In this document: piece after piece, positions 21,715 to 52,165 of the stretch
How positions within the stretch are numbered: position 1 is the stretch's first letter
Layout: every line of letters begins with the position of its first letter
NCBI GenBank assembly: GCA_021292105.1
Contig: CM037875.1
Location: forward strand, 60,694,408-60,758,407
Length of the DNA: 64,000 bases
Source of the DNA: Anadara kagoshimensis
Taxonomy: Eukaryota; Mollusca; Bivalvia; Arcoida; Arcidae
Reading direction: 5' to 3'
Notes under the pieces: generated by a model
Told to the model about the DNA's origin: nothing
The model's database searches: none
What the model saw: the letters and a program-made list of their open reading frames with translations, nothing else
Made by a program: the position numbers and the translations under genes

Positions 21715-24700
21715 ATGGCGTTTTTGTCAGACACAAGTCATAACTTTGTTCCCGATGGCCAAGTAAAAGAGGACATACCAACAGTTTTGGTGGATGAACT
21801 AACACAACATCTAAAATGCACCTATTGCAATGGTTTATATCAAGATCCGGTTATCAATGTTCGATGTGGTCATACGTTCTGTAGGAAATGCGCATTTGCA
21901 ATAACCCACTGTGTCAAAGATGGAAATCACATAGACACAACACAGCTTGTTTTAAACAGGTAGATTTTGAAATGTTTTATCATCATCATTCATCATCACT
22001 GTCATCATCATCATCATCACTCTCATCATCATCATCATCATCATCATTCATCATCATCATCATTCAAATTGTTTTTGGTCATCTCACTTATCATTACTGA
22101 GTAGCCTTTCAGTGAATTTTATTTAGATCAAAACACCATGTTCTCGAAAGCAGATGGCAAGAAAGCAGGAATAATAAAATAATTGTCAAACTTCAGTAAT
22201 TTTTACCACATTTGGCATGGTGCTCTTCAATTTGTGGAAATGATTGTGGTGAATAATTTCCATGGAATTAAATACTTTTCCCTAAAAAATTATTCTTGCC
22301 TTTGCCCAACATTGCAACAATGATGCACATCACTAGCACCTGGTTTTATTGTGACACACAGAAGATTAATAAATGAATACCTGTATCTCAAAAAACAGGT
22401 GCCAGTGGTCAAATCTAGCATTGTTAAATGTTGATTATTCCAAATTTTCAGTTCACATAATGGAGAACAAACTCTACTTGCAGTCACAAATTGCTGAAAT
22501 AATGCCGATGCTACTTTAAACAATAAGTCATTCAATAACTCCTGCTTTCAATTAAGCAGCTCCCTTAAGGATGACTCAAAGGGGGGGGGGTGTCAATATA
22601 ATTTTTCAAATTCAGGAGATTTCAACCTCCTGCACGGGAGAAGCAGTGATAGCGGGAGATTCCAAATTTTTTGTCTTGATATCGGGAGGGTTGGCAGGTA
22701 TGAAAGCTTTTACTCTGTTATCATTTGGTGTAATAAAGATGTCAACTTAATTCCAAGACAAAACAATATAGAAAAACAGACTTTTCAACAGATTAGAGTT
22801 GGACTGTAGTGCGAGCAGTCAACAGTCCTGCAGATGTAACGAGGCTGAGCTATTCAATTAGGCTTTGTTGTATGGCTAGGTTTCCATTCCTGGTAGCCAA
22901 AATCGCCATTGGCTACTAATTTCTGAGGAATTCTTTCAAAAAGTAACCTATTTTAGCAAATTTGTGGAAAAATACTTTAAAAAGGACTATATTTTTACAA
23001 ATTTTGAAAATTTGGCTACTAATTATTTTCAATTTGTGGAAACCTAGGTATGGTATATAGTAGATATAATGGATCTTTTAGTCTTGTGGTAGAACACTCA
23101 TTTTCACCCAATAGGTTCAGGTTCAGTGTGGATTTTTTCAGGTGTTTTCTCCCCTGTGTTGCATAGATAAAAATTAAGGCCCTGATATTTTATCACATCT
23201 TATTTTCCTCATTGTTAATGTTAACAAAATAAAAGTAGATGACATGGTTAATTTAAAGTCACAGAAGTAGCGGTCAGCTTCCACTGTTTTGTTAATTTAA
23301 TATTATAATTTTCATTTTTTTATCATTTAAAAAATAATCATCTGTCATTACTTTCAGATCTGTTGTTGATCAGATTTATGATCTACATATTCACTGTCGA
23401 TATGGAGTTATAAAAGAAAATGGCGAGTATAAACCAGATCCCACGGGTTGTCCAGAGAGAATTACAATAGGTAAGAACCAAATAAAGTAGTGAAAACAGT
23501 TTGAAATCTCCACTGTTTTTGTTTCACATGAAAAGAGCGAGACATTAGTCTTTTGACCCTCTGTCACCAGCATGTGTCAGTGTCATGTCAACTTTCTAAA
23601 TTTTAGAGTTTAGTTAAAACTAATTTTGCTTGAGACAATAAGAGATAAGAAAGTAAAACTTGGAATTCAAATTCATTTTGTAACTAGCAATCTGCTTAAA
23701 ATGAAATATGAAGTTCTGTTGACCTTGTCTTAAAGTTTTGATTTTTGTGAGCCATGCCTCTTAACTGCAGTAACAATGGTTCAAAGTGATTTCTGTGCTA
23801 TGATTTAGCAATTTTTTTACAATAAGCCAATTTAAAATTAAACTTTAACTTTAAAATTTTAGCTACGATCTAGATACTAAAATGTGTTATTTTTTCAGAT
23901 TGTGTATGTGAGAGATGTGAATATTTAAATGTAAATTTTCTTGTATATTATTACAGGACAGAGACATGAACACGAAGATCAGTGTACATTTATATTTGTT
24001 GTATGTCCTAACTCTGAAGAATGTGGACAGTTTAGGAAATTTGAATTAGAACAACACTTCCAGAGTTGTGCCTTTATGCCATGTCCAAACCATATAAAAG
24101 GTATGTATTCAATTCAAAACTGATATTCACACCTGTCTGTAATGGTAATCTTAGTCACACCTGTCTGTAATGGTAATCTTAGTCACACCTGTCTGTAAAG
24201 ATAATCTTAGTCACACCTGTGTGTTTTGACACCTTTGTCACACCTTTCTGTAGAGATCGCATTTGGGGGCATTTATAAACTGGAAATGGTGACCTTTATA
24301 TGCATATATGATCAGTTACACTTAATTTCAAGCAAGAGAGGTTCAGACTGAGTTTACACTATTGGCATACTCTTCCATTTTGACCAGCATACCACATAAA
24401 CAGTACCGCTTAACATTTGTACAGTGCATGTACTTATACTATAGTACCATTAAAAACCATCACTTGGGAGCATTGATCAGGAGGGTTTTAACCAGCCAAC
24501 CTTGGTATTCCCACAATAACATAGTTTTTACAGGATCAATTTACATGTATATGATGCCATATCCAATGATAATAATGATTCTGAACAAAAGTAATGGGGT
24601 GTCACATGGTTTGTTGTTAGTTGGTCCCCGATTCCTTCAGAAAGTTATATGTTACTTGGTCTCAATGATACTTCAATAGATATAGTAGATTTATGACAAA

Positions 24701-27700
24701 TTTAATGCAGCATATACATGAAAATAATTGGTAGCTGTATTTGACATGAAGAAGATTATGACATTAATTTCTGTTTTTAAAAAAAACTACAGTAAAACAA
24801 TTAAGCTGTGGCGACTTTATTTTTAACTTCATTACAGAGCAACTTCGTTATATTGTTATAAATAAAAATAATATAGAGAAGGGCCGGGCCCAATATTTAA
24901 CTTCATACTATCCATGTATTGGCTGAAAGCATGTTCCTTATATTTGTGTTTTACTGTAGAAGTAGAATATTAAAACTTAAATAAATATAATGTCAATACA
25001 TCAATGTTACACTTTTAGGATGTGAATTTAGGGGTAAGAGTGATCAGATAAGTGAACATGAACTATCCTGTGGATACAGAAGTGTACAACAATCAACTGG
25101 ATCTGTGGATCCAAGTTTACAGGTGTGTAATCACTGTATATAACCTCATCTAATCTATTCTCTTCATGCCTGTTGTCACATAAAGTCCAGATACACTGTC
25201 TCCATCTTTGTCCTTGCCTGCCACGATCTTTGCTGACCCCCAACTGATTCAGCCCAGTTGTGATCTTTTCTGTTCGGTAGTACTCCTCCATGTTGTCTTT
25301 GGTTGGCCAACTTTTCCCTTTTTTCTGAATGCCACGTCAGAGCTGTTGTACATATTCTGGTGTTGTCCATTCTTATTACGTGACCAATCCATTATCATTT
25401 CTTGTGTGCTATAATATCCCTTAATTTTTGTGTTTTTATTTTTTGATGCAGATATTAAACATAAACAGGGCCAAAAATGTAAGCCTGCTAAACCTACTAC
25501 AGTAATCTGAATATTTTCTGTTTATACCAGAAAGTTTCACTGCCCTTTTATCCTTGCCCATCATATTCTTACATGATCATGAGCATTAATAAGTATCGTC
25601 GCCCAGTATTAATTTTTATTTTGCTGGTCATTACCAGCAGTCAGGTTTTGGTTAAAGTGATTTGATCATGTTGGTGTGTAAGGTAAGCTAAACAGTTTTT
25701 TTTTCTGACATCTCAACACCCAATACTCCACTCTGCTATACTCAAGATTCATGATGCTTACTTGTTTGGAGCACCTAATCTCAACTCTGTTACTCATGGT
25801 TCATGTCAAGGTTATGTATTTGAAATCATTTAAATTTATTTTTATAGGGTAAACTTCTAGATGAGAACAGAGAATTAAAACAAACTGTTAGATCTCTAAC
25901 AGACAGAGTATCAAAGTTAGAAGAAAGTAACAACACACTAAGGTCTCAACTAGAATATTGTATCAGGTAATTTAAACTACAGTTAATATGTGTGTCATTT
26001 ATGTGTATGTTATATACTGTAAAGGGAATTATTTTTCGCTGGGTGAAAATTTCGAGATTTCTGAAATCTGGAATTTCACGTGGGTGTAATCTTCACATAA
26101 CCAATAAAGAAAGGAACAATCTAGAGGATTAGTGACAAAGTCATTCGGAACATCCTCTGGATGTGAAATGATAAAGGTGACAACTTTCTCCTTTTTAGCA
26201 GCATATTCATGTATTTGCATCTTGGTGACGAATATGAAGCCGTCTGAATGATTTTGCTAAATCTTTCTGAGTTTATGGAGTCTAATGCGATCTACCCATC
26301 TAACTTGGTTAGATTTTTGGGAAAACTTCGAATCATACTTAATTTTGGAGCCAAACATGCAAAAAATAGACTTTTCATAAAAAATTCTGTTTGACTCCTG
26401 ATCAATAAATGTTCATTGTACATGAAAGTCGTCCATTGACCGAAAAAAGTTTAAGATCTTACGGAAAAAACAGTATTTTATATTTTTTCTATGTTGTACA
26501 AAAAATCCACAGTAAGTGTTCAAAGTTGATCCTATCATCCAAAAAAAAAAAAAATCCACAACATACTGTGTGCAGCATGAATGAATTTTTTCCATACCAA
26601 AATTCTGCATTAAACAGCATGTGTTCAAACGCCATTACGGTTATCAACTTGAAACTCGGCTAAATATATATTTTAAGGTATTACGAAAACAACAGTATTT
26701 TTATATTTGTTCTATTTTACATACAAAATTTATATAAAATGTTTAAACTCAACCCTGTCTTTCAATACACAAAGTGCGCCAAAATGCATGTGTGATTTCT
26801 AGATTCTATTTATGTCAGAATTTGTATTGTTAGGATTGTGTCCGATTTGAAGACAATATTGTTAGTCAAAAATACAAGGTAATAAAATCAATAAGTACAG
26901 GTACTTCTTACCTGTATGTCAAACTGAACGACTTACTACAACATTTAATATGATAGTGAATGTGTACTAATGATGATACTGATTCAGGTATGAAAATAAA
27001 CCACTTTAACAATGTGATCTAGTGATAATATCTGCCATGTATTATGTATGAAAGTGATTCTTCATTATTTCTTTATTTAGTTGATAAAATTAATATTCTG
27101 TGATTATAAATAATAAATTACGGTATACAAATTAAACTTTGATTCAACACTGATTACCATGGTTACAATGACATGGTCTAAATATATCACAATAAATAAG
27201 TTCTGAAATATATACAATGTATCTTTCTTTTCCATTATTTCCTGTGAAATTATAAAGAAAAAACTCTTTTAACACTATCAGAATGTTATAGAAATGCTGC
27301 ATGTTTTGTATGTATATATTTAATTCTGTTCAACATTCTCTATAAATTCTTCAGGAGTGTATGATTCATTCTATTTATAATGCTGTCATTTGGAATCTTC
27401 TTATATTACCAATAAGAGTTATTTTAAGTAAATTATTAATTTTAATTGATAAAGAGTCTCAGCTAATCAAATTTTCATCCTTAAATTGTAATGATGATTA
27501 AATACATGTACAACGTAAGGATTCAATAGTCTATGATGTTTATAGTGTGACAGTGAAATATTTTCCAATAACATGCTATATGTACTGTTAATTATCATGC
27601 ATATTAATTTTACCAGTGTGATAATTTCAGTGATTTTCAGGATGAAACAGTAGTGCTGATTCATATCCATCTCCTTATTAAATACAGTCATAGTCACCAT

Positions 27701-29376
27701 TAGAATTAATTACGTTAATTTACCCAAACAATTTACACTTTAAAAGTACATATGTACCGGTAATATATTTACAAAATTTGATAGAGGGGCTGCTTAAGGG
27801 GTTTCAACTAATAATAATCTGTCCAGTAATCTGTTAATGTAGTTTTATTTTATTTTATTTTAAATTTATGAAACCCATGAACTTGTACAAGTATGTTAAA
27901 ATTAACAAAAGTCATTGTTTTAGGAATAAACTATGCCAAATTGTATCCTGGAACTGGCAGGACATTGATTTTAAAGTTTATACAAAAATGGTACTGGTTG
28001 CAGCGTAACATCTAAAAGTTTATTATGTGGCAAAGATAATGGAGTTTGCCGCTGTACCATGTGATCAATACCACCTAACGTTTCTGCAAAATGTTTTGGA
28101 AAACCTTAACGTCAAAAGTTTCCACAATAATGTTGTTTTTACTGGAAAATGTCATCTCATTTCGATTCCATATCCATTGGTAATAATTGTTTCACAAAAC
28201 GTTAGGCAGTATCACCTAACGACAAACCCCATCTGGCAATATTTGTGTATATGAATTGGGAGTGCAGTTTCTTTATTATGATAACATGTATATTGTTTTA
28301 TGCTAGTAATTCAGCCATTGTATTGTTTTAAATAGAAACTTTAATGTTTATCATTGCAGTAATATGCAAGCAATGGGACAAAAATATGAGAATATGCAGT
28401 CCAGCCTAGAACAGATGTTGATGCCTAGGAACCGTAGATCTTCTGGTTCTCCAGGTACGACAGCTGACGGATCGGGACTAAGATCAAGAACAAACAGTAG
28501 CAGTAAGTCTATTATATTATATATATAATGTAAAAGAAGAAACATTAGCGGTAGAAAAAAATTGATTTCCTAAACTATTTCTGGGTAAAAAAAAGGGAAA
28601 TAATTTTTGCCAAGATTATATATTTGGGGTACAAGAGCTGAAAATTGTGAATATATTTTTTCCTTGTGCATGTTTCTTCTTGTACAGTTTATAAACTACA
28701 TGTTGTAAATTAATTGTTTCAGCTGGCCTGCTCTTCGTAATAAATGAATTATTGCATCTAGCCTGCATGACAGTAGAAGAGCTGTTGTCATGCCATTAGT
28801 ATTCACTGTGAAATTTAAGAAATCAAAATCAATCCATTCAGTTAAGTCTTCAGTATGTCTGTCTTTGTGTAAAGATTTGGTTCCATAAGGTATAGGTTAT
28901 AATCTAAGCAATGGTCATTGTAATATAAATTGCATCAAGTTACTTTTTTAAAAAAAAAAAACAATATGATGTTAATAACATTTAAATTAATGTTATGAAC
29001 TAGGAAATGTATAACCATGCAGCAACCACCTGTTTTACAGACAGAATTGTTCTGATATGTCACTGTAAATGTTTCATTTTGGAAGGCTAAGTAATTTGAA
29101 AAATCACCATGTTCTAACACAATTTAACTCTTTTTAATGTGGCTTGTAAGTTCAGTTTTCCAGCCTATCTAGTACATGCTGTATTAGTAGTGCAATGTAT
29201 AGACTAGACCTACTGTAACTACATGTATTGTATTTTAGGTTCTTTTAGAAAATCAGTATCAGGGAGTCCACATAGTACAACGATGGAAAACTGGGAAATG
29301 CCTTTCCAGTTTAAATGTATTGGAACATTAAGGTGAGTGGCATAGTATATGTGTTTATGTTTGGTGGTGGTGGTGT

Positions 29377-29407
<31 letters not shown>

Positions 29408-32400
29408 GGGGGTTATAAAAAGGTTATACATACATATGTTACAAACAAGGTTTTAAAAGTTATTATTTTAAACAAACTTTGTATATGCATTATTGAACAA
29501 ATGAATGACTTTAAAAATTTAATGCTGTAACCATTGTGTGTTTACATAAAAAACGACTGATCTGAGAAAACTACTAGCGTTTTTGACAAGTTTGGGGAAA
29601 TGATACATTTTAACATTTTATGTGCTGTTATCTTGTATAGAGATAGGTGATCTTAAGTGACAACTTAGAATCACAGCAGCTCACACACCCTAGGTGTGAA
29701 TCCCATGCTGGCAGATCTTATAATGATAAAGTTTGTTAATTCGCCTGCTGAAGATTTTTTTCTGGGCACTCTATATTCCTCAACCATCCCAGAAATAACT
29801 ACCATTACTCTTAAATGGGGCATTTAACACCATAACGTCACTCAACTCAACTGTATTGTTTTGTGTTTTGTAGTTCTGTTAAATTTGTTTTTGTGACAGT
29901 ATCTTGTTGCTGTTGTTATTGAAATGTTTTGTAATGTTCCTCGTATTTAACAGTCATGATATTAAATTTGAAATATCTGTTACAGAGGTCATCAGAATAT
30001 TGTTTGGTGTTTAGCAACATATAAAAATAAAGTCTACAGTTCTGGTGCTGACAGTTTAATTAAGGTGTGGGACATGGAAGCCTTGGCTAAAGGATGTATA
30101 AAAACTCTACAAGGACATACAGGTGTGGTAAGTTATTATTTTATTTTACGCCATAGAATCTCTAGTTTACAATGACATAGGGAGTGGTAGGTCATTATTT
30201 TATTTTATTACACCTTATGTAAAAATCTAGCAATTTCATTGGATAAGAGCTATGTAACAATTTGTACTGTCACATAAAATTTATAATGTCACATAGCAAC
30301 GCGCGTGACTATGTGACAGTATGTTTGTTCGAGTCGCCTCCCTTCACTGGTTCACATCAGTGCTTTGAACAAAACATGTTTTCAGTTGTATCTACGGCAA
30401 GCGTCTCATTGTTATTGATAATGTTTACAGTCGTCTGTAACAACAACGGATGATGTTTGTCGAGGTTTACAATGACTTTCTTGGCAATTTGTTAGAGTCT
30501 AAAGACTCTGCATCAACTATACGGATCATAAACGGACCGTGGATATGTTTCTGGTAAAATAAAACAAACATTCGGTGTAATAAAATAAATATTACATTTC
30601 TGACAGGGTGCCAGTACATATTGTCACCTCTCGAAAAGCATTGTCAGCCTCGGCTTTCGCCTCGGCAAACAATGCTTCCTCGAGGTGACAATATGTACTG
30701 GCACCCTGTCAGAAATGTAATATTTATATAATATGCCATAGAGTTTAAAATTACAATGACATACAGGGGTTGTAAGATATTATTTTATTATATGCCATAG
30801 AGCCTCAAGTTTACAAGGACATAAGGAGTGGTAGGTCAATATTTTATTATATGCCATAGAGAGTTGTCCTCATGAGTTGGAAAATTCACATCTCTAAAGT
30901 GCCCACTCATTCTGCAGAGTTTAGAAAAGTGTACCCTGTAGTAGACAAAACTATTAATCAACACAAAGAAGCTTCAGAAAGCAAAGTTATATACAACATT
31001 CAATACTAATGTTTTACAGCATTTGATCACCCTAAATAGTTTTTCAAGGTGTACTGGATAGCTGTTGAAAGTGATGATCTGCTGTATACAAGGGGAGATA
31101 ACCTGTGTAACAAAGTCTGAAACGTTTGATGAGTTGAGAGTTGAGTAATGGTGTTTAACGTCCCAGTCAAGAATATTTCACTTATATCGAGACGTCGCCA
31201 GCTATAGGCGAAAGTGCAGAAATTTTGCCTGTGCGTTGCGCTGATGGCATTATACAGCAGGGTTCTTTAGCGTGCCAAGCCCACCGTGACATGGGACCTT
31301 GTTTATTTTAAGTTCCCATCCGAAAGAACCGTGACTTTCATTTCAGAACACTGAGTGCTTGGCGAAAGAACAGTCACTACCACTTTTAAGTCTTAGGTCA
31401 GACCTGGCCGGGTTCAAACCCACAATCTCTCACGTACGGAGTGAGCACTCTACCAACTGAGCTACCGCAGTGGCTTGATGAGCTTTTCTATATACATTAT
31501 ACATGTGCATATAGCTATATTTCGTTCTATCTTAGGTTCATTGTATGGCTGTTGGAAATGAGGATCTGTTGTATACTGGGGGAGATGATCTGTGTATAAA
31601 GGTTTGGAACCTGGATACCCTCGCTGAGTTGACTAGTCTACAGGTAATGATGATTTTTATACCCCACTTGGAAGGAGAAGGGGTATGGTGGTTTACCTCT
31701 GTCCTTCTGTCTGATACACAAATATCTCAGTAACTACTTAACGCAGCTACTTGAAATTTTTTATGTCAATACATTTTGGGCCAATACTACAAGTACCAAT
31801 TTCAAGTCTGTCGGACATCTACTTCCTGTTTACCGACATATGTTAAAGGCTGGGGTATACTTAGTGAGCAGTAGCTCACAGATTTCTTGTTAATTTTCAT
31901 TTGATATATTTATAAATGACAATAATAAATATCATTTAAAATGTTTTATAATGTAATCTACCAGTCCTTAAAGTTTCCTTAAACTTTATTGATAATTACT
32001 AGGTATGGCAAAGTGCATCTCGCACCCCAAAAATAGAAAATGCTGATTATATATTTATCCTTTATTTATTTTTTATCATTGGTATAAAATCACTTCAATG
32101 GATTTCGTCAGTGTACCTAATGATACCCCATAAGATTTGTGTGGAATGATTATTTTCATTGGCTATGGCAATGTGCTGTGAGGGGTCATAAATGTACCAC
32201 ACCTGCTGTGAAGCGGATCATTGGTTTTTTAAGGCATCTTCCTAAGTACCCCTAAATGCAGAGTGCTTTGTTAAAGAACAGCCACTACCTATTTTCAAGT
32301 AATAGTCAGACCCAAAGTTGAGTTCAAACCCACTAACCCCCCCCCCCACCCCCCACCCCCCCCCCCCCCCCCACCCCCCCACACACACACACACACACAC

Positions 32401-35400
32401 TGGTACATGACAAGTTGAAGAGATTGTGAGCATAAGTCGTTATCAAGCACCTTTTGTCTTTATTACAGAATGCCCATGAAACATTATAAGTGCAATGGTA
32501 CTTGTAGGAGATTACTTATTTACCTCATCATTCTCGTTAATCAAGGTAAGTTGTAACACCTGGGAACAGTAGTTCAAAGCTCCACTAGCTTAACCAGTAA
32601 CAGTCAGTGAAAATTCAAAATATTTGACTGTTTGATGTAAAAATTATACATGTACATTTTTAACTTTAACTGCTTCTTTTGATAACAACAATCATGTGCA
32701 TTGACTATTGAACAGAAATCTCAGAAATATTGCCTAAAACTTACAAAACTGGTTAACCTAATGGGGCTTTAAACTACTTGACCCTGGTTTATAATTTGAT
32801 TAAGGAAGAGCTATTACATCAATATTTGGTAATAAGTCCAGAGCATGCAAAATTTAATGATTATTTATTACAATTGTGTCACCTTCTTTGTTAAATTAGT
32901 CAGTTTTCAATATTCATATCATGAAATAGCACATTATTAAGTTATCAAATTTGATAAAGACACCCATTGTTTACAAATAAAAGCTTATAGTTGTTGATTT
33001 TGTACCAGAAAATAATGCTTAGTTACTGAAATAATACTGTGCTAATAAAACATCCAGAGAGAGACAGAGATATGAACTATATAAATTTAAAGGAACCTAC
33101 CTTCTGTCGGGTTTAAATCTGTCTTGAATGTCATTTGTATTAGAAGTTTACCAATGTTAGCTATATAGACTGTCACTTATTGATTATTTAATCTTAACAT
33201 TGTTATTTAAACACATTTAAAACCAGTTTTAACTGATACAAAAGTAACCCTCAAACAAACTCCAACTGGGAAATCTATGTCCTCCCAAGCATGTACATGA
33301 TCAAAACAAAAACGGCCAAAGCCACACTTTTCTCTACCCAAGAATTGTTCCTGTGGAGTTTCACATGTTTCATAAAGAACTGTAGGATTATTTCCAGGAT
33401 ATGTGGTAGAAAAAAATGTTTATGGAAGAAATGGAGTGAATACTATTTGCCTCCCCCTTCAGTTGGGGACCTAATTACAAACTGCTTTTATATTGTCTAT
33501 ATTGATTATAATTACAGATTTGGGAAGCTAAAACATTAACATTAAAACACACAATATCTGGTCTACATCATTGGGTGAGAGCACTTGCTGTCAGTCCTGC
33601 AAAGGTAAGGAGAATGTTTAAAACTGTTATAGTGTATGTAAGTTTTATCATGTGATTGGTTGGTATACTTTGTAGGAATAAGTAGTTTACAAGTACATAC
33701 ATACAAATGTGATTTATTTTAATAAGCTGTTATGGTAGAAATGGTCAAATAATTGTATTCCCTGCAAACTTATTTTGGGGGTATATAGTACCGTAATCAT
33801 CATGTCTATCTGTCTGTCTGTGTTTGTCTTTTTCTCATGTCTGCTCAATAACTTCCCTATATTTAGATTGGTTTTCATGAACTTGGCACAAATCATTCAT
33901 AAAAAATTTAATGTATGGTGCATACTTGATTAAGTGAGAAGATCAAAGATCAAGGTCATGAGGCCAAATATTGCATTTTCTCCTTAAAATAAGTGCACAA
34001 ATTTTATGCTAGGGAAGGTGAGTATTTGGCTCTCAAGAGACAGTTATAGTATTTAAACTGGCTAAGTTAACCCTTAATTGGTCAAGGATTGTGAGTTTAA
34101 ACCTCACTCATAACAGAGTTTTCTTTGAGAACATTTACATACATGTAATTTGTCCAGACGTTAGCTATGAAAAAAGCTAAATACAAGGTTAGTCTTTCTA
34201 ATGATTTGAGCAGTTAAGTAATAGTGTTTAACGTCCCAGTCAAGAATATTTCACTTATATAGAGACATTCTGTCTAATGAAACTCTACCATAATTGTGGT
34301 CCATTGTCTCATAGTTAAAGAAACTGTAGTGAATCATAAAATAGTAGGCTACCTTTATACTGTAGGTTCATGAATAAACAATACAAATAAAGACTTAAAT
34401 TTGATTTAGTTAAAACATATTTATTGTTTTGTATTTTCTTTGCACCCAACCTCACATAAGAGGTTCATGTGTTAAACTTAATTTGCCAATTTTCAAAGTT
34501 CTTCTTTGCTTTTTGGATCATGATTTGTACTTGGAATTATGTTTGTTTTTGATTTATACTTTATGAACTGTTCAGTGGTTTGTTTCATTTTATTTGTATG
34601 TTATTTAAGGACAAGATATACAGTGGATCACATAACACCATAGATGTATGGGATACAACAGGGACGTTTAATCTGAAAGGCAAAATTGACCATCAGTTTG
34701 GTTCTGTGTATTCACTAGCAATAACAAAACAGTACCTTATAGCTGGTAAGTATATCACAAACTAGTAGTCAAACCTGTCTATAAAGGCCACCCAAAGAAA
34801 CCAGTAAAATTGACTTTTATGGGCAGGTGGTCCTTATATACAGTTAAAATAACATGAATCAGGAGAAATTTGGATAAATTTTACTGGCCTGTATATTGAG
34901 TTGACCTTTAAGGCAGGTTTGACTGTATCTAATAGGTTAATAGTATCTTATACAGTCTCGGCTTTTAAGTATTAACAGAAAACAACATTGCCACCACTTT
35001 TATGAAATGTTCATTTTATCATTTCAACGTTATTATTAGGACTTAATGTAAGTTCTTTACATTTATACTGTAGTCCTTAGCCTTAATCATGCTAAATTAT
35101 CTCTTTGATTGCTGTAATGCAGACGTTTTTCCGCGTTAAATTAGCCATGCTGTTTTTATTGCCTTTCAAGACGAACATGACTGGTGATGTTGCTAACTTT
35201 TGAATAATACCTCCAAACATTTACAATTATATTAATGTCAAGTCTTTGGGGTGGTCATTACATATGATTAATGAATGTTCTGTCCTATATGCTTGTACAA
35301 GTCTTGAACAATAGGTAACAACATTGTCGACCTGAAAGGTGTACCTTATGTCAGGGAAATGACAGACAATAACGGGACAAAGATTATTATCAGCAATATC

Positions 35401-38400
35401 GATATATTCTTTACCATTGATATTGTTCTTCAAATGATCCAAGTGATCACTCGTAATCTCTGATAAATTGAACAAAAATGAAATGAACACTAGCAATAAA
35501 AACCTTGAGATGGCAAGATTTTGTAAGACGAAGTGAACACTCCCAATAAACTGGAGATGGTAAGATTTTGTAATGACTGATAAAATAAACACCTCCAATA
35601 AAACTATGTTAAGATTTGGTAATGACTAAATGAACTTGAGATGTTAAGATTTCATAATGACTGATATAATGAACACCTTCAATAAAACTGGATATAACCT
35701 AATTAGTTGTATGGTTACTCTGAATAGAACCTTTTGTTTCAATGATTTGTAAGCATTGAAGATTAAAATCACTTTATCTACATCTAAAATTATTTGTTGG
35801 TATTAATTGTTAATAGGTACATATAATAGAAACATACAGGCCTTCAACATTAACACATACGAGCATGTATCAGCATTACGTGGTCATATAGGGACGGTGA
35901 CAGAGTTAGCAGCCTCACCCTCGGGGAGGTTCTTATTCTCCTCCTCTACAGATAATACAGTCAAGGTGAGGTGTAGGAGTGTAGATCACCTGAATAGTTC
36001 ATTAACACCTGGATTGTTCATTTACACCTGGATTGTTCATTTGCATCTGGATTGTTCATTAACACCTGGATGGTCCAATAATGCCTTGGTTGTTTATTAA
36101 CACCTGGATTATTCATTCAGTCCTCAATATTTGGTGATTTCGGAATTTCCAATAAGATTTTGCACCTGAAGGCCAAACTTGGATATGTCTACACACATTA
36201 TCAGGACAGATCACATTATGATAAAGTTTTTCAGTTTGCTGGCCAAATGTTGGTGCTTTCACCAGGTACACCAATTTCCTCCACAATTCACAAGCGTTTA
36301 GATCTAAGTGAAAGGCATTAACTGGGACATAAAACACTATTACAACACTGTAAAGAACAAATGACTGTTGAAGGACTTTAGATTTTAATGTTCATGCATG
36401 GATGTGTATATCGCTTGCATATGTATCTTTGCTTATAAATGCCATTTTTCATGTTCATAAAAATGTACCCTAGTAATGTCCAGTATAGAGATGTATTACA
36501 TTAAGTTTAGGTGATTTTGGTCTATTGTAGGAACTTACAACCAGAATATACAGATATTTAACATTACTAGTTACCAGCACATACAGACATTAACTGGTCA
36601 TATAGGAATCATTAACAGTGTTGTAGCCTCACCCTCACATAGATTTCTCTTCTCATCTTCTGTGGATAGTACAATTCAGGTGATCTACATTCCAATTTAT
36701 AGTATTATTTTAGTATTTAGCACAGGATTGTTCACTTTATGTTGCATATAACTTTTTTTTACAAATTATTGAGCGAAATTTGATAATGTAAAGGTGAAGG
36801 GCTTTTAGAAATTAAGGGATTATGTCCCTGTTTATACCAAATAAATGGGAAATAGTGAATATCTTTAAATATATTCTTGTAAAAAGTATAAGTGTTTGAC
36901 TTCTAGCATCTATCCTCATAGTAATTCATAGTTTCAATTTGCACAAATCTTAGTTTAGGGTCCCAAATGGGGTCATTGTAGAAGGATGCCTATAAATAAT
37001 ATGAAAGTCATAATTGATGAATGTACAATAGCTAGATCCTAGACATTTTAGATGTAGATATTTTAGATGTAGCATCCTTAGGACAAGTACATTTTGTACT
37101 ATTTGATAATTTATAGTTTCTATAAATCATTAAGAAATCCCTTTTGATCAACATTCAAAAGTTATACCTTAGATATTCCATACCCTGCATCCTAATGGTG
37201 TGTTGTTTTTTTTAATTTCCACAAGTCTTAGCTTTGGGGGGTTCAAATGGGGATATTTTAATATACGATGGTTGGTTGGTTGAATGTTGCTTAACGTCGC
37301 ATCAGCAATTTTTCAGCTATTCGCGACGAGAACTATTTAATTAATCTCTATGGATTAATCTATGAACAATTTTTGTGTATGCATGTGAAGTGCGAGTGTG
37401 TTGTATGGTCTGCTCACAGAGTCAGTACACCGCAGACAAGCGTACCACTCCCCCAGTCCATTATACTGATACCAGGTGAATCAGTCAAGGCCAACAGTAA
37501 GGAAAATTCACTTTCCACATGTGGTCCGAGCGGGACTCGAACTCACAGCGGTGAGAGACCCTGGATTTGAAGACTGACGTCTTATCCATTAGGCCACCGT
37601 GCCCTCTTTTAATATACGAGTCCCTAAACCAATCCAGCTTGGTGAGCTTACAATGTCTAAATCATTGACATTTGATGTGGTATTTTAGCACTGATAGTAA
37701 TTAACAGTAATCTATACATGATTTTTGGGCTGTGGGGTCTTACAAGGGGAAACTTTTTAGGGAGACCATTGATTTATGAAAAGTTTCTATCTAATCTGCA
37801 AGAGATATTGGACTCACTAAATTAAGTTTTAACACATGAATTTAGAGAAAAAATTCTTATACAGGCACTATAAATAGTTTTAATACTTCTATATCTGATT
37901 GACTTGTTTTTGGTAGTACTTTCCTTTTCATGTTTTGAACTTTAGGAGTGTTGTTTTTTTTTTTTTTAACCCATGTATTATTTTTGTTACAAACATTTAG
38001 ATCTGGAATTTAGAGAACATGTTACCGATACAGACATTACAGCGACATGTTGGTAGTGTTAATACGTTAATACTGATGGGTGATTTCCTCTTATCTGGTT
38101 CAGAAGACAGAGAAATTAAGGTAAAACTGTAGATCATACTAAGGCTTAATTAAATCTTAAGTCTGTCCCAAGCCTGGCTTAATAGGTTTAATGCTCTAGG
38201 CTTGCCTTAGAGGCTTAATAAAAGCTTAAGTTTGATCATAGCCTAGCTTAATATGCTTAATTAAAGCTTACATCTGTCCCAAGCCTGGTTTAATAGGCTT
38301 AAGTAAGCCTTTAATCTGTCCAAAGCCTGGCTTTATAAGCTCAATTTAAGCTTAAATTTGTCTCAAACCAAAAAGATAACAAGACTTGGAAAAAATCCTT

Positions 38401-38864
38401 GGTTTAAAACAGTACAAGGGTCCCTCTTGGTTTGGTTGTCATTCCACTGCATTTCAGCACCCAGCATTGCTGTCAGTTCATGTACCATACATATTTTAGT
38501 AAGTCGGACTTACGTAATGTGAAATTAAATTGATGCCCAGGGACTTGCCATGTAGACTGACTTGATCTTGAACTAGTTTTAATACTAGGTCTACAGCCTG
38601 GACAACATTAACCAGCCTTCACAATTTTGAACTTTAGTTTTAAGAAATGTATTCTTGTTGTTTTGAACTATAAAATTTTGTAGAAACATAAAAATGTAAC
38701 ACTGTCTTGCTGTAAAAAACTTGTACTCATCAGTGTTCATGCTACCAATCAAAAACACTAGATTAATTATAGGACTAACTGTTCAGTTAAATCTTAAATT
38801 CACTATGTATTTTCAGGTGTTTAAACATTTCCAGATGCAGATGGGTTTTGCACTGCAGACTTGA
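21715..38864 (+). CDS. TRAF7: TRAF7-like RING/WD40 E3 ubiquitin ligase (15 coding exons)
   Basis: TRAF7 is a cytoplasmic E3 ligase and MEKK3/JNK scaffold. Exons: 21715-21959, 23358-23470, 23957-24100, 25019-25122, 25848-25966, 28360-28502, 29239-29332, 29986-30127, 31536-31643, 32469-32545, 33518-33604, 34610-34745, 35817-35965 (13a), 38001-38120, 38817-38864. Product about 609 residues (human 670). A stop at 21700-21702 lies in frame upstream of the ATG. RING at residues 35-70 (KCTYCNGLYQDPVI, RCGHTFCRKC, then C..D as in TRAF7); TRAF-type zinc fingers in exons 3-4; a coiled coil in exon 5; a Ser-rich linker in exons 6-7; seven WD40 blades from about residue 312 (e.g. GHQNIVWCLATY, DSLIKVWD, LHHWVRALAVSPAK as in human LNHWVRALVAAQS). 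Exon 10 carries a one-base frame break. Exon 13 has an alternative copy, 13b. It lacks the long Ser-rich N-terminus of human TRAF7, so 'TRAF7-like' is the safe name. Confidence 0.9.
21979..22065. repeat. (ATC)n microsatellite
   Basis: Interrupted ATC/TCA triplet run just inside intron 1 of the TRAF7-like gene. Confidence 0.9.
22879..23044. mobile_element. Small MITE with GGTTTCCA ends, copy 1
   Basis: The left end GGTTTCCATTCCTGGTAGCC and the right end TTTGTGGAAACC are inverted, flanked by CTA on both sides. The body contains GGCTACTAATTTCTGAGGAA. A near-identical copy in the opposite orientation lies at 53559-53722. Confidence 0.75.
24129..24255. repeat. Tandem repeat, ~31-bp unit
   Basis: The unit CACACCTGTCTGTAATGGTA + ATCTTAGT occurs about three and a half times in TRAF7-like intron 3, with units nearly identical at first and degrading to the right. 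Confidence 0.85.
24362..24680. repeat. Dispersed repeat (copy 1 of 3)
   Basis: Shares words such as CCATATCCAATGATAATAAT and a run of short inverted pieces with 28027-28255 and 48050-48310. No coding role is supported: its open frame matches no family, and the frame differs between copies. Confidence 0.45.
25140..25400 (-). mobile_element. LINE remnant: 3' end of a reverse-transcriptase ORF
   Basis: Translated on the minus strand in shifting frames, this gives MDNTRICTTALTWHSE, GKVGQPKTTW and LGVSKDRGRQGQRWRQCIW followed by LCDNRHEEN. This is the familiar C-terminal tail of many non-LTR retrotransposon ORF2 proteins (H..RM, ALRW.P.GKRKRGRPKTTWRR, A.DR..WR..V.ALC). It is broken by frame changes and lies in TRAF7-like intron 4. 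The LINE clade cannot be named from this piece. Confidence 0.65.
28027..28255. repeat. Dispersed repeat (copy 2 of 3)
   Basis: Contains TTTTGGAAAACCTTAACGTC and ATTCCATATCCATTGGTAAT, shared with 48050-48310 and more weakly with 24362-24680. It lies in TRAF7-like intron 5. Confidence 0.5.
29361..29412. repeat. (GGT)/(GT)n tract followed by poly-G
   Basis: A compound simple repeat starting 28 bp after the exon 7 donor. The poly-G run exceeds 20 bases, so its exact length is likely to be unreliable in any assembly. Confidence 0.9.
30112..30860. repeat. ~60-bp tandem repeat that includes the exon 8 splice donor, split by an insertion
   Basis: The unit ACAATGACATA.AGGGGTTGTAAG + ATATTATTTTATTATATGCC + ATAGAG occurs at about 30112 (exon 8 end and donor), 30171, 30748 and 30810. 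Copies two and three are separated by about 510 bp of inserted sequence (roughly 30213-30727), which itself ends in a long palindrome. The tandem copies preserve GTAAG/GTAGG words at the position of the real donor. Confidence 0.65.
30586..30727. repeat. Near-perfect palindrome, ~60-bp arms
   Basis: The left arm ATAAATATTACATTTCTGAC, AGGGTGCCAGTACATATTGT and CACCTC is repeated inverted on the right (GAGGTGACAATATGTACTGG, CACCCTGTCAGAAATGTAAT and ATTTAT). The short centre is GC-rich (CAGCCTCGGCTTTCGCCTCG). It lies in TRAF7-like intron 8 and is likely a foldback element end. Confidence 0.85.
31049..31123 (+). pseudogene. Decayed duplicate of TRAF7-like exon 9
   Basis: The stretch TAGCTGTTGAAAGTGATGAT, CTGCTGTATACAAGGGGAGA, TAACCTGTGTAACAAAGTCT, GAAAC aligns without gaps to exon 9 (31550-31614). 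In the exon 9 frame it reads WIAVESDDLLYTRGDNLCNK, against MAVGNEDLLYTGGDDLCIK, and then a stop replaces the conserved Trp of the WD40 motif. It ends 3 bp before the target duplication of SINE copy E. There is no usable donor, so it is read as a dead exon. Confidence 0.8.
31134..31474 (-). repeat. tRNA-derived SINE, full-length copy E
   Basis: Best-preserved member. The reverse complement starts GCCACTGCGGTAGCTCAGTT and GGTAGAGTGCTC (A box TAGCTCAGTTGG), then GGGTTTGAACCCGG (B box), and ends with TTGACTGGGACGTTAAACAC and CATTACTCAACTC. Flanked by an 8-bp direct repeat TTGATGAG (31126-31133 and 31475-31482), the expected target duplication. It lies in TRAF7-like intron 8. Confidence 0.9.
32160..32338 (-). 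repeat. Diverged SINE fragment
   Basis: Carries CTATGGCAATGTGCTGTGAG, the CCACACCTGCTGTGAAG body word and GTTCAAACCCACTAACCCCC in the position of the B box. It runs directly into a poly-C tract. Confidence 0.5.
32338..32400. repeat. Poly-C and (CA)n tract
   Basis: Long C runs broken by single A residues, then about ten CA units. It ends 68 bp upstream of TRAF7-like exon 10. Confidence 0.9.
34206..34265 (-). repeat. SINE tail fragment
   Basis: GTTAAGTAATAGTGTTTAAC and GTCCCAGTCAAGAATATTTC match the 3' end of the SINE family. The rest is absent. Confidence 0.7.
34467..34608. repeat. Dispersed repeat sharing TTTGCTTTTTGGATTGTGATTTG
   Basis: Related stretches occur here and at about 42200-42290, 47040-47130 and 57340-57420. 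The common core is AATTTGCCA.TTTCAAA, TTTGCTTTTTGGATCATGAT and GTTTGTGTTTTATTTGTAT. This copy ends at the acceptor of TRAF7-like exon 12. Confidence 0.5.
34766..34925. mobile_element. Mariner-type MITE, copy 2
   Basis: The ends AGTCAAACCTGTCTATAAAG and TTTAAGGCAGGTTTGACTG match copy 1. It starts about 20 bp after the exon 12 donor. Confidence 0.75.
35485..35700. repeat. Tandem repeat, ~60-bp unit, about four copies
   Basis: The phrase AGATG(G/T)TAAGATTT..TAATGACTGAT...GAACACC(T/C)CCAATAAAACTGG recurs at about 35505, 35550, 35610 and 35640. It lies in intron 12, just upstream of exon 13a. It produces the 123-residue open frame on the minus strand at 35227-35598, which is not supported as a gene. 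Confidence 0.7.
35817..35965 (+). other. TRAF7-like exon 13a (alternative exon, WD40 blades 5-6)
   Basis: 149 bp. It begins in phase 1 after a TAG acceptor (35815-35816), completing the Gly codon of exon 12, and ends in phase 0 at AAG|GTGAGG. It encodes GTYNRNIQAFNINTYEHVSA, the GHIGTV turn, ASPSGRFLFSSS and DNTVK, i.e. the last strand of blade 5 and most of blade 6. It is immediately followed by a ~20-bp tandem repeat (35990-36110). Confidence 0.9.
35990..36115. repeat. Tandem repeat, ~20-bp unit
   Basis: The unit TTCATTAACACCTGGATTG recurs six or seven times with substitutions, starting 25 bp after the exon 13a donor. Confidence 0.85.
36531..36679 (+). other. TRAF7-like exon 13b (second, intact copy of exon 13)
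   Basis: 149 bp, exactly the length of exon 13a. It begins after TCTATTGTAG (acceptor 36529-36530) in phase 1 and ends in phase 0 at CAG|GTGATC. The frame is open throughout and reads GTYNQNIQIFNITSYQHIQT, LTGHIGII, ASPSHRFLFSSS, VDSTIQ. It matches 13a at 30 of 50 residues with no gap, and the differences cluster at non-structural WD40 positions while GH, SPS and D are kept. Because 149 is not a multiple of three, including both copies or neither would shift the frame into exon 14. Confidence 0.85.
37269..37606 (-). repeat. tRNA(Arg)-like SINE, complete, with 13-bp target duplication
   Basis: The reverse complement starts GGGCACGGTGGCCTAATGGA and TAAGACGTCAGTCTTC (A box as in arginine tRNA), then GTGAGTTCGAGTCCCGCTC (B box), and ends GACGTTAAGCAACATTCAAC plus CAACCAACC. 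A perfect 13-bp direct repeat TTTTAATATACGA (37256-37268 and 37607-37619) brackets it. A decayed relative lies near 41930-42010. Confidence 0.9.
38133..38368. repeat. Tandem repeat, ~55-bp unit, about four copies
   Basis: The phrase CTTAA.TCTGTCCCAAGCCTGG + CTTAATAGGCTTAA recurs from just after the exon 14 donor through about 38368. Confidence 0.75.
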
Positions 38865-41700: not shown

Positions 41701-42846
41701 CTACAGTGTCGTATGAACACACAGTAATATTTACTCACATAATTTTAAACGTATGGGCTTATGCCAGGTTATTTATCTCTATGAGTTAATGTTCATTCAG
41801 GTGCAGGAGTGAATATTGGTGTTTGTCATCTGCCTTGTACCAGAAAAAAATGTTGTCCACTGATATACAATGTCACAGATTAACATTACATATATCCCAT
41901 TGTATTGACATCGAGCTAACCAACAGGTGTCAATTGTAAGGGAGACCCACTCACCACATACGGTGTTACAATCGGGGATCTAACTTATAGCGGTTAAAGA
42001 AGCCAACCACTATTAATCACCACTGCCCTCATTGATTTGTAATAATAATCAAATAAAGATCAAAAGTTGTAACTGAAATAGATTTATTTGACAAAAGCAC
42101 AAAAACTAGTGACAAACGGTCACCAAAATTTGACGTTTTACCAGTTTTCGAAGAGAAAGTGCTTAAACAACAAAAGCTTTTACGTGTTTGACTTAATTTG
42201 CCAGTTTCAAAATTTTGACTTTGCTTTTTGATTGTGATTTTGACATTGAACGGTGTGTTTGTGTTTTATTTGTATAGTTATTTAGACATTTTATGTTTCT
42301 TACTTTACATTTGTTGTTGTGTATGTTGGTGGCTTTAGTTATTGTCGCCTACATGAACCCGGTACCTTTAGCTTTCATTTCCTTATTTAATTTTAATTAT
42401 GTCAATAGCAATATTAACGCTTATGGTAAATAACGTCATCGTTTCCGATAACGAAATCTATATGCTACTATCAGATTCCAGATTCTGGCGGAAAGATAAA
42501 ACTTTAATTTTTAATATTCGCGCGTTAGAGATATGTTAAGTATAAAAAATAATCGGCCGTAAACAATGCCATTTCATTGTTATTACAGCTTTGCCGGAAA
42601 ACTCGAGTGTCTATATGTATTTTGGTCAAAACTTAATATCCGGAAATTTATCTAAAAATCCATATACAATATAACTGTTTGATATGAAAATTTCACAATT
42701 ACTGATAAGATTTGATTGGACTCCATCAGGTCAAGATACCATTATAAATCAGTAACAGGCAACATTTAATAATACATTTGTTTTAGTATCCTATCTCAAC
42801 CATCTGGCTGTCTTCTCTACCAGTAATTGGTACAGAAACAGTAAAC

Positions 42847-51029: not shown

Positions 51030-52058
51030 TTATTTTTTCTTTAACCATAATACATTCCAGTCCCATGATGCAGACTTTGATGGGTCTATTTGCTTAGACC
51101 CATTTTCTAAATAAGGTACAAAATTTCTTTTCATCATAAATTCGATAATCCCTTTTCCAGAGGTTGCATTTTTATGAAAAACCCATTCCATAAATACAGC
51201 TTTTATATTTACTGAATCAAAGAATTTTTGACCACCAATTAAAGCTCTATATTCAAATCCTTCTATATCAATTTTAATTATAACATTTTTAAAATCTTTG
51301 ATTTCTTTCAGCTCTAATAAGTTATCTAGGGTGAAGGTATTAACAGAACCATAAGTTCCACCAATCTCCAAGTGCCAAAATTTTTTAACCTTTTTGGTAT
51401 TTTCTGCTTCAACATCAACAAATGTCCCTCCCATATTATTGACATCTACGCCTAAATTGACAGTTACGCCTGATTTATCAGATAAAGCGTTATGTATTAT
51501 TTTTATGTTGTCCTGTAAATGGCCGTCTCTAACGGATAAGCACAGATGTTGTACGTTTTTATTTAAGGCCTCTACAGCTAGCACTTTCCTTCCAAATTTG
51601 GCGACATTTAAAGTAAACACACCTAGATTTGCACCAATATCAATAAAATTTAAGGACGGATCAGATCTCAAATAAGTCAAAAGTTGATGAATTTTTGGTG
51701 CTTCAAATACGCCTGCTTGTATAATTCTAGATGATACAAATTTATCCTCCTTTGGTGTGTACACATATATTGGAATATTTCCGTATGATGTTTTAAGCCT
51801 GGTTTTGATAAAATCATAGCAGCCATTACAAACATGTGTGTTTACATCCCATTTAGACTGGTAAGAGTACACACTACGGAATGTGTTATCTATACAGTTT
51901 GTGTTGTTTACTTTTGGATTCATTTTAATTGGTACTGGTACCATCAGAGGTTCTCTTTGTTGTGTTGGACCTGACATTATGTCTGTATTTTTGTATACCA
52001 AATAAATGAAAACTGGTACAACTATAATAACACCAAGTATGACATGTGTGGTCTTCAT
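51030..52058 (-). CDS. Membrane-anchored FkbM-family methyltransferase
   Basis: A single uninterrupted coding exon gives 342 residues from the ATG at 52058-52056. That ATG is preferred because it places a type II membrane anchor (THVILGVIIVVPVFIYLVY, residues 4-22) at the N-terminus, as expected for a Golgi/ER lumenal enzyme. The frame stays open upstream to an acceptor (exon starts about 52131), which makes the rest 5' UTR or an alternative N-terminus. The lumenal part has the SAM-binding motif FIDIGANLGVFTLNVA (about 138-153), the acidic strand-2 residue in VLAVEAL, and the FkbM signature IKIDIEGFEYRALIGG followed by FMEWVFH. Cys pairs (NCIDN, CNGCYD) suggest disulfides. The family methylates varied small molecules and glycans; the substrate here is unknown. 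Single-exon form may reflect retroposition or intron loss. Confidence 0.88.
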   Translation of the reverse strand: MKTTHVILGVIIVVPVFIYLVYKNTDIMSGPTQQREPLMVPVPIKMNPKVNNTNCIDNTFRSVYSYQSKWDVNTHVCNGCYDFIKTRLKTSYGNIPIYVYTPKEDKFVSSRIIQAGVFEAPKIHQLLTYLRSDPSLNFIDIGANLGVFTLNVAKFGRKVLAVEALNKNVQHLCLSVRDGHLQDNIKIIHNALSDKSGVTVNLGVDVNNMGGTFVDVEAENTKKVKKFWHLEIGGTYGSVNTFTLDNLLELKEIKDFKNVIIKIDIEGFEYRALIGGQKFFDSVNIKAVFMEWVFHKNATSGKGIIEFMMKRNFVPYLENGSKQIDPSKSASWDWNVLWLKKK

Positions 52059-52165
52059 TATAAAGCTGGTATCAATGTCACTGTGAGTACATGTATGGCT
52101 GGTGTACTGTCCTCTGTTTACACATAAGTTATCTGTAAATATATATAAAAATGTCATCAATATTA

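What the first reader, a model, noticed from the sequence alone, without database searches (positions are those of the whole stretch)
35817..36679. Phase-locked mutually exclusive exons in the WD40 propeller of a TRAF7-like ligase
Two tandem exons (35817-35965 and 36531-36679) are each exactly 149 bp, start in phase 1, end in phase 0, have good splice sites and encode gap-free homologous 50-residue segments with 30 identities. Since 149 is not divisible by three, splicing in both or neither shifts the frame into exon 14; only one-at-a-time use makes a protein. Structural WD40 residues (GH turn, SPS, D) are kept while surface positions differ, which points to selected alternative versions of blade 6, a likely substrate-binding face. 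I know of no such pair in vertebrate TRAF7.
Basis: partly seen in the sequence, partly recalled or inferred. Interest (0 to 1): 0.88.

Follow-up and report, generated by a model that had tools for sequence, protein, structure and literature searches.

The report
Swappable exon pair in clam ligase
A clam gene for a TRAF7-like protein-tagging enzyme carries two alternative versions of one exon, an old duplicate pair that related bivalves seem to share, and choosing one or the other probably changes the part of the protein that grips its targets.

Summary
The two exons are real: 35817-35965 and 36531-36679, both 149 bp, AG/GT flanked, phase 1 to 0, open, 30/50 residues identical. Using both or neither breaks the frame; dS 1.83, dN 0.34.

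Relatives show the same pair. Bivalve TRAF7-like proteins with near-identical flanks differ sharply in this segment: Pecten X2/Mizuhopecten X1 flanks 84/86, exon 28/50; Mercenaria/Ruditapes 84/86, 20/50. Models of Mya and Mytilus edulis hold both types in the same order. A tree of 17 bivalve segments splits into A and B, matching upstream and downstream where order is known; separate duplication in each lineage is rejected (AU p 0.009). Two sea urchins show a like swap (85/86, 21/50).

The segment spans blade 5 strands c,d and blade 6 strands a,b. The two positions that best separate A from B are published contact sites, D-1 and R1.

Best reading: mutually exclusive exons that switch the ligase's binding face, a known kind. 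The gene is a paralogue of vertebrate TRAF7, not its orthologue. No reads were available, so exclusivity in RNA is inferred.

The parts
21715..38864 (+). TRAF7-like E3 ligase gene, coding part, about 15 coding exons (13a/13b counted once); relatives have RING, zinc fingers, coiled coil and a seven-bladed WD40 propeller
   Evidence: tblastn of P0001, P0002 and P0005 against the window; Pfam hits of relatives and AlphaFold2 models of P0002 and P0005
34610..34745 (+). exon 12 (136 bp, enters in phase 0, leaves in phase 1), ends ..YLIAG
   Evidence: translation and splice sites
35817..35965 (+). exon 13a, A-type version, 149 bp; acceptor TTAATAG, donor AAG/GTGAGG
   Evidence: 49/50 identical to Tegillarca granosa P0001
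36531..36679 (+). exon 13b, B-type version, 149 bp; acceptor ATTGTAG, donor CAG/GTGATC
   Evidence: highest identity among the 17 rows is to the B-type segment of Mytilus trossulus P0005, 33/50
35966..36530 (+). 565-bp intron between the two copies; 18 nt from the 13b acceptor to the nearest upstream AG
38001..38120 (+). exon 14 (120 bp, phase 0 to 0), IWNLENMLPIQ..REIK; supplies the Trp that follows exon 13 in blade 6
38817..38864 (+). last coding exon, VFKHFQMQMGFALQT and stop
   Evidence: same ending in P0001
32469..32545 (+). exon 10 (blade 3): 77 bp, one base short of frame near its 5' end although its protein is conserved; probable assembly error or allele, not part of the exon pair
   Evidence: 91% identity to P0002 over 23 residues

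Best explanation
Exons 13a and 13b are an old tandem exon duplication spliced in a mutually exclusive way. Each mRNA takes one of them. The ligase then has either the A or the B version of the last two strands of propeller blade 5 and the first two strands of blade 6. Frame: each is 149 bp entering in phase 1, so mRNAs with both or neither carry early stops (shown by translation) and should be removed by nonsense-mediated decay (inferred). Choice: both exons have ordinary GT-AG sites and are 565 bp apart, so neither a too-short intron nor U2/U12 incompatibility explains exclusion. Regulated splice-site choice, perhaps helped by RNA pairing, with decay as a backstop, is the most likely mechanism (inferred). 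Function: fold-bearing residues stay, while residues expected on the top-face rim change type: R1 T/S/L/N/M to H/N/Q, D-1 T/S/A to V/I (one S), and the residue before GH R/K to T/S/Q/M. The two isoforms therefore most likely bind different partners or substrates with the same RING (inferred).
For: Equal length, phase and splice signals, 30/50 identity, no stops; dS 1.83 against dN 0.34, no similarity in flanking introns beyond shuffles. Same-protein contrast in relatives: A/B pairs Pecten X2-Mizuhopecten X1 flanks 84/86, exon 28/50, and Mercenaria X3-Ruditapes X1 84/86, 20/50; same-type controls Mizuhopecten-Argopecten 83/86, 42/50 and Mercenaria-Dreissena 81/86, 36/50. Among 64 usable of 73 proteins, 131 pairs have flanks at least 85% identical and 14 of these have exon 13 under 70% (breakdown in the full report). 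Mya P0041 and Mytilus edulis P0031 models contain A then B, fused by cutting into the exons. Tree: A against B split, support 93/92, not starred; of 16 labelings of five lineages the three best agree with gene order in the three lineages where it is known. Duplication in each lineage by itself rejected, AU p 0.0087. B-type in an uninterrupted 621-residue frame on a 2028-base contig (P0007, unnamed, scallop-like), too short for a gene with such introns, so probably a spliced 12-13b-14 form. D-1 and R1 are the two best A/B-separating positions of 50 (definitions from PMC3419727).
Against: No RNA data for this species, so neither 13b use nor mutual exclusion is seen directly. Database isoforms may rest on prediction. 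Labels A and B were first given by eye; the tree uses only 50 columns. Single-lineage tests are mostly not significant (p 0.09, 0.07, 0.04, 0.20), and A-to-A identity exceeds both cross values in only 5 of 10 lineage pairs, against 9 of 10 for B-to-B. A first tree with 45 rows and distant outgroups did not gather the A rows: Potamilus, Pecten and Mytilus A fell on the B side (support 50/92). R1 overlaps between types (Asn in the A row of Dreissena). 13b has a donor (GTGATC) further from consensus. The three named oysters and the gastropods showed one type each in this database, although 90% clustering can hide a second. The window gene also has a one-base defect in exon 10, which would matter if it were real.
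Confidence: 0.85

Rival explanations
1. 13b is a dead or dying copy: a duplicated exon that is never used in this species.
For: No reads from this species; donor GTGATC far from consensus; this gene also holds a decayed partial copy of exon 9 at 31049-31126 with a stop in place of the Trp codon, so duplicated exons do arise and decay here; the Tegillarca model P0001 uses 13a.
Against: No stop or frame change in 13b despite near-saturating synonymous change, dS 1.83; 13b is nearer to the B-type of Mytilus trossulus (33/50) than to its own neighbour 13a (30/50); it carries the residues typical of B at positions 22, 29, 45 and 50.
Confidence: 0.07
2. 13a and 13b are consecutive WD40 blade exons included together, or 13b is a cassette exon added at times.
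For: WD40 repeats resemble each other (13b matches exon 14 at E 6e-5), and gene models P0031 and P0041 place both in one protein.
Against: Joining them stops 20 residues into 13b; 60% identity over 50 far exceeds the 38% over 45 of the next best match; in relatives one copy completes seven blades; the two fused models cut into the exons, as expected of software forced to keep a frame.
Confidence: 0.03
3. The pair is real and used, but the difference has no functional meaning: both versions are equivalent and kept only because each is used in some tissue.
For: No binding data exist; many of the 50 positions do not separate the types.
Against: The same positions carry type-specific residues across arks, mussels, scallops and heterodonts, and the two strongest are known contact sites.
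Confidence: 0.15
4. Separate duplications in each bivalve lineage, made alike by convergence or gene conversion.
For: Single-lineage tests are weak: arcid p 0.09, heterodont 0.07, pectinid 0.20; the 45-row tree did not gather the A rows.
Against: All lineages at once are rejected, p-AU 0.0087; the best labelings agree with gene order where it is known.
Confidence: 0.06

Closest known systems
Coronin-1D exons 5a/5b of tetrapods (PMC3203266, passages read)
   Same: A pair of mutually exclusive, duplicated exons coding for part of a WD40-type beta-propeller
   Different: Another gene family, found in tetrapods; this pair is in a RING ligase gene and spans bivalve orders
Tandem duplicated exon substitution events (PMC9741552, passages read)
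   Same: Homologous exons changing one region of an otherwise identical protein; the authors analysed 236 in human and call most events ancient
   Different: That survey is of human genes; the passages that I read do not name TRAF7
FGFR2 IIIb/IIIc, cited in PMC6071210 (passage)
   Same: Two exclusive exons with decay of mRNA that holds both
   Different: Different gene and domain; in the clam the decay step is inferred only
Vertebrate TRAF7 (domain map in PMC12801879, passages)
   Same: RING, TRAF zinc finger, coiled coil, seven WD40 repeats
   Different: The clam gene falls in a separate clade with cnidarian, sponge, echinoderm, hemichordate, brachiopod and annelid proteins; a TRAF7 proper exists beside it in Argopecten, Saccostrea, Pomacea and Lingula

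Membership tests
Mutually exclusive duplicated exons (criteria of PMC3228551, section 5) | internal exons of similar length in the same gap | tested here: met
   149 and 149 bp between exons 12 and 14
Mutually exclusive duplicated exons (criteria of PMC3228551, section 5) | conserved splice sites and reading frame | tested here: met
   AG/GT on both, phase 1 in and 0 out, no in-frame stop
Mutually exclusive duplicated exons (criteria of PMC3228551, section 5) | sequence homology | tested here: met
   30/50 residues, tblastn E 2e-19
Mutually exclusive duplicated exons (criteria of PMC3228551, section 5) | transcripts hold exactly one of the two | not testable with these tools
   No reads for the species. 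Indirect: of 73 relatives, the 64 usable rows hold one segment each; two gene models hold both with trimmed edges (P0031, P0041), P0033 holds none, and six more were left out as incomplete or misaligned
Vertebrate TRAF7 orthologue | domain order RING, TRAF zinc finger, coiled coil, seven-bladed WD40 | tested here: met
   In relatives, not by a scan of the window gene itself: RING in P0005 and WD40 in P0002 and P0005, long helix and seven blades in both models; PF02176 (zf-TRAF, name recalled) is listed for some relatives such as P0009 and P0024. The window gene aligns to P0001, P0002 and P0005 over these regions
Vertebrate TRAF7 orthologue | falls in the clade of vertebrate TRAF7 | tested here: not met
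   14 TRAF7-like rows (window represented by Tegillarca P0001) and 14 TRAF7 rows form separate starred groups, SH-aLRT 100 and 96; Capsaspora joins the TRAF7 side (quick tree)
Docking-site/selector RNA pairing control | complementary intron sites stronger than chance | tested here: inconclusive
   Best duplexes -29.0, -37.4 and -30.8 kcal/mol for the three intron pairs; only the pair of first and third introns exceeds its 8 shuffles (-29.3 to -35.7)
Exclusion by short intron, distant branch point or U2/U12 mismatch | very short intron, long AG-free stretch, or U12-type sites | tested here: not met
   565-bp intron, 18 nt from the 13b acceptor to the nearest upstream AG, donors GTAAGT, GTGAGG and GTGATC

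The most novel reading that the evidence does not exclude
The A/B switch predates the split of protostomes and deuterostomes: bivalves and sea urchins inherited one exon pair that toggles the R1 contact residue of blade 6 (mostly T or S against N or H) in a TRAF7-like ligase family not seen in vertebrates here, an old built-in selector of ligase targets that has gone unnoticed.
Probability: 0.28. Interest if true: 0.8.

Novelty: new member of a known kind. Interest (0 to 1): 0.6.

Why it matters
It gives a ready test of whether alternative exons can re-target an E3 ligase: two isoforms identical except for 50 residues, with the predicted contact residues named. Because the pair seems shared by farmed bivalves (mussels, scallops, clams), its use can be read from RNA-seq of those species. 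It also points to a TRAF7-like family that many invertebrates have beside TRAF7 and for which I found no functional work.

Tried and rejected
Considered and rejected: constitutive tandem blades (frame and blade count); dead copy (dS/dN, B-type residues); short-intron, distant-branch-point and U12 explanations for exclusion. The RNA-pairing scan was inconclusive (only 8 simple shuffles per intron pair). A search with a short 136-residue alignment, meant to separate isoforms that 90% clustering merges, returned 9 proteins at E 1e-20 or better, none more than 67% identical to the window, so no ark clam transcript was found. The first 45-row tree of 50-residue segments with distant outgroups was poorly resolved (8 of 42 inner branches starred, 21 open) and did not gather the A rows; I then used bivalves alone. 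Whether the sea urchin pair is the same duplication could not be decided: shared p-AU 0.37, independent 0.40, cross-swapped 0.04. The chance figure for D-1 and R1 ranking first and second (3x2/(50x49) = 0.0024) is my own arithmetic and assumes independent positions. In the rows shown, the PDB sequence and fold searches gave WD40 propellers of other families.

Print status: searches for TRAF7 with 'mutually exclusive' (117 papers, 20 listed), TRAF7/mollusc/alternative splicing, TRAF7/bivalve, mutually exclusive exons/bivalve, mutually exclusive exons/WD40 (12 listed) and mutually exclusive exon/mollusc/exon duplication showed no title or abstract start describing this pair. Only an open-access library was searched. 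Of these papers I read passages of PMC12801879, PMC5240507, PMC3203266, PMC9741552 and PMC7969005; the others I saw only as listings.

Full report
What is there. The window holds a TRAF7-like gene on the + strand, coding exons from 21715 to 38864. Its closest database relative is a Tegillarca granosa protein (P0001, 83% identity over 93% of the query), so the window is most likely from another ark clam (order Arcoida). Exons 13a (35817-35965) and 13b (36531-36679) are confirmed: 149 bp each, AG acceptors, GT donors, phase 1 in, phase 0 out, open, 30/50 residues and 94/149 bases identical without gaps. Both join exon 12 (34610-34745) to exon 14 (38001-38120) in frame. With both, the frame stops 20 residues into 13b; with neither, it stops within exon 14. 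Synonymous change between the copies is near saturation (dS 1.83) and non-synonymous change low (dN 0.34), and the introns beside them are no more alike than shuffles. The similarity is therefore old and kept by selection on the protein. A contrast in the same gene is a partial copy of exon 9 at 31049-31126, which has a stop where the Trp should be.

Relatives. Of 244 proteins found with a model of the window protein (13a version, exons 7 and 10 left out), 120 were listed, and I took the first 73 as the TRAF7-like set; one of these, P0071, has slime moulds as its nearest named kin and lies outside. The database is clustered at 90%, so isoforms of one species are merged and each record shows one version. 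I compared 86 flanking residues (exons 12 and 14) with the 50 of exon 13. Proteins of related species with near-identical flanks differ sharply in exon 13: Pecten maximus X2 and Mizuhopecten yessoensis X1, flanks 84/86, exon 28/50; Mercenaria X3 and Ruditapes X1, 84/86 and 20/50. Pairs of one type do so less: Mizuhopecten and Argopecten 83/86 and 42/50; Mercenaria and Dreissena 81/86 and 36/50. Over 24 bivalve rows (22 species or unnamed records plus the second copies), 16 of them labelled, mean exon identity is 0.59 within A (28 pairs), 0.59 within B (28) and 0.49 between (62), with flanks 0.76, 0.77 and 0.78. Scanning 64 usable of 73 proteins (nine left out: P0001, P0031, P0032, P0033, P0041, P0062, P0066, P0067, P0070), 131 pairs have flanks at least 85% identical. 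In 14 of these exon 13 is under 70%: nine are A/B pairs, one pairs A with an unlabelled record, one is the sea urchin pair, and three are B/B pairs among heterodonts (27, 29 and 30 of 50), so B itself changes fast there. For the 65 pairs with flanks of 95% or more the median exon identity is 98%. In sliding windows over whole proteins the trough lies at exon 13 in three of the four pairs scanned; the fourth involves the gapped model P0031. Two gene models, Mytilus edulis P0031 and Mya arenaria P0041, hold an A-type followed by a B-type segment in one protein, joined by cutting into the exons, as software would do if the whole exons did not fit in frame. A third, P0033, has neither.

One old duplication. 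With 17 bivalve segments (two from the window), a maximum-likelihood tree puts 8 A-type and 9 B-type rows on the two sides of one branch (bootstrap 93, SH-aLRT 92; not starred). Gene order is known in the window, in Mytilus and in Mya: A upstream, B downstream. Of 16 ways of labelling five lineages, the three best (0.567, 0.547, 0.540) all agree with that order. B-to-B identity exceeds both cross values in 9 of 10 lineage pairs, A-to-A in 5 of 10; the A copies of heterodonts are the divergent ones. A tree in which each lineage duplicated the exon for itself is rejected (delta lnL 36.4, p-AU 0.0087), while the A/B tree equals the best tree. Taken singly, the lineage tests are weaker (p 0.04 to 0.20), and an earlier 45-row tree with distant outgroups did not gather the A rows. 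On balance the pair existed before arks, mussels, scallops and heterodonts separated. Potamilus (A-type) and Pinctada (B-type) were seen with one version each. The three named oysters showed an A-like version; whether oysters lost B is open.

Beyond bivalves. Strongylocentrotus purpuratus X2 and Lytechinus pictus X1 are 85/86 identical in the flanks and 21/50 in exon 13. Sea urchins therefore also seem to have two versions. The Lytechinus form is nearer to bivalve B and the Strongylocentrotus form slightly nearer to A, but 50 columns cannot tell shared from independent origin (p-AU 0.37 and 0.40; the swapped assignment 0.04). At R1 they have Asn and Ser; the Lytechinus form also lacks the His of GH. 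Of the 18 non-oyster rows (two of them unnamed), 13 have Thr at R1; the others have S (2), G, Q and H. Thr is thus probably the older state; it is kept in the A rows of arks, Potamilus and Mytilus but not in those of Pecten and heterodonts.

What the exon does to the protein. AlphaFold2 models of an A-type (P0002) and a B-type (P0005) relative give seven blades with high confidence (block means about 90-98 within the propeller). Exon 13 supplies strands c and d of blade 5 and a and b of blade 6. His 24 and Asp 46 of the blade 6 DHSW tetrad and a Ser of strand b (position 42, my assignment) are the same in all 17 bivalve rows. PMC3419727 (passages read) defines R1, R1-2 and D-1 as the residues generally required for binding on the top face of WD40 propellers. 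By its rule (V/L/I, R1, R2, V/L/I; D-1 before the tetrad Asp) I place these at positions 29, 27 and 45 of the exon; the 16-residue spacing of R1 and D-1 agrees with the G-beta numbering in that paper. Ranking the 50 positions by how well they separate A from B, position 45 comes first and 29 second. At D-1, A has T/S/A and B has V/I (Ser in Mya). At R1, A has T, S, L, N or M and B has H, N or Q. Position 22, just before GH, is R/K in A and T/S/Q/M in B. Position 27 (R1-2) does not separate the types; positions 19, 50 and 16, which are not among the three contact sites, rank third, fourth and sixth. The ranking is not fully independent of my labels, but the tree gives the same labels without them.

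How exclusion could work. Passages of PMC6071210 list known ways. A short intervening intron does not apply (565 bp). U2/U12 mismatch does not apply (donors AAG/GTGAGG and CAG/GTGATC). A distant branch point with a long AG-free stretch, as in OGDH (PMC7969005, passages), does not fit 13b, where the nearest upstream AG is 18 nt away. Decay of double-exon mRNA fits, since 149 is not a multiple of three. Competing RNA pairing could not be shown: one intron pair exceeded 8 of 8 shuffles slightly and the other two did not. I therefore favour regulated site choice with decay as a backstop; this step is inferred.

Gene identity. With 14 TRAF7-like rows, 14 TRAF7 rows and two outgroups, the TRAF7-like proteins and TRAF7 form separate groups (SH-aLRT 100 and 96; quick tree). 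Both occur in Argopecten, Saccostrea, Pomacea, Lingula, Nematostella, Lytechinus and Oscarella; the two vertebrates in the tree are in the TRAF7 group. No record named as a vertebrate was among the 73 TRAF7-like relatives.

Known or new. The criteria for mutually exclusive exons (PMC3228551, section 5) are met on length, splice sites, frame and homology. That paper found such features in exons not annotated as mutually exclusive in only 6 of 1705 genes on the Drosophila X chromosome (section 13). A pair inside a WD40-type propeller is known in coronin-1D (PMC3203266, passages). The finding is a new, old and widely shared member of a known kind. What is unusual is its place in an E3 ligase and the coincidence of the strongest A/B differences with known contact positions.

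Limits. No read data could be used. Isoform labels come from database names. The assembly carries a one-base shortfall in exon 10 (77 instead of 78 bp) although the protein there is 91% identical to Potamilus over 23 residues; I take it as a sequencing error or allele. The Tegillarca model also lacks this exon, and lacks exon 14 too, which leaves some doubt. The whole genome could not be searched because the tool did not complete.

Noticed in passing
32469-32545: Exon 10 of the TRAF7-like gene is 77 bp, one base short of frame, although its protein is well conserved; the Tegillarca model omits this exon. Assembly error, allele or something lineage-specific.
   Followed up: partly
31049-31126: Decayed partial copy of exon 9 (31536-31643) of the same gene, with a stop in place of the Trp codon.
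   Followed up: partly
26814-26873: A 20-residue stretch in an intron matches (75%) an extra segment in the coiled coil of the Tegillarca model P0001; possible alternative exon.
   Followed up: no
P0061 and P0064 (Strongylocentrotus purpuratus X2, Lytechinus pictus X1): Sea urchin TRAF7-like proteins show the same kind of swap of the exon-13 segment (flanks 85/86, segment 21/50).
   Followed up: partly
P0025, P0043, P0053 against P0035, P0042 (gastropods): Some gastropod TRAF7-like proteins have three extra residues (NAG/NSG/TSG type) at the exon 12/13 border and others do not; possible alternative splice site.
   Followed up: no
42787-43368 (+): Exon-like frame of a seven-transmembrane receptor (Pfam 7tm_2 and Dicty_CAR above cut-off).
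   Followed up: partly
51033-52238 (-): Open frame of 402 codons with an FkbM-type methyltransferase domain.
   Followed up: partly
58765-59181 (+) and 61526-62119 (-): C2H2 zinc finger frame and a MADF/Myb-like DNA-binding frame.
   Followed up: partly
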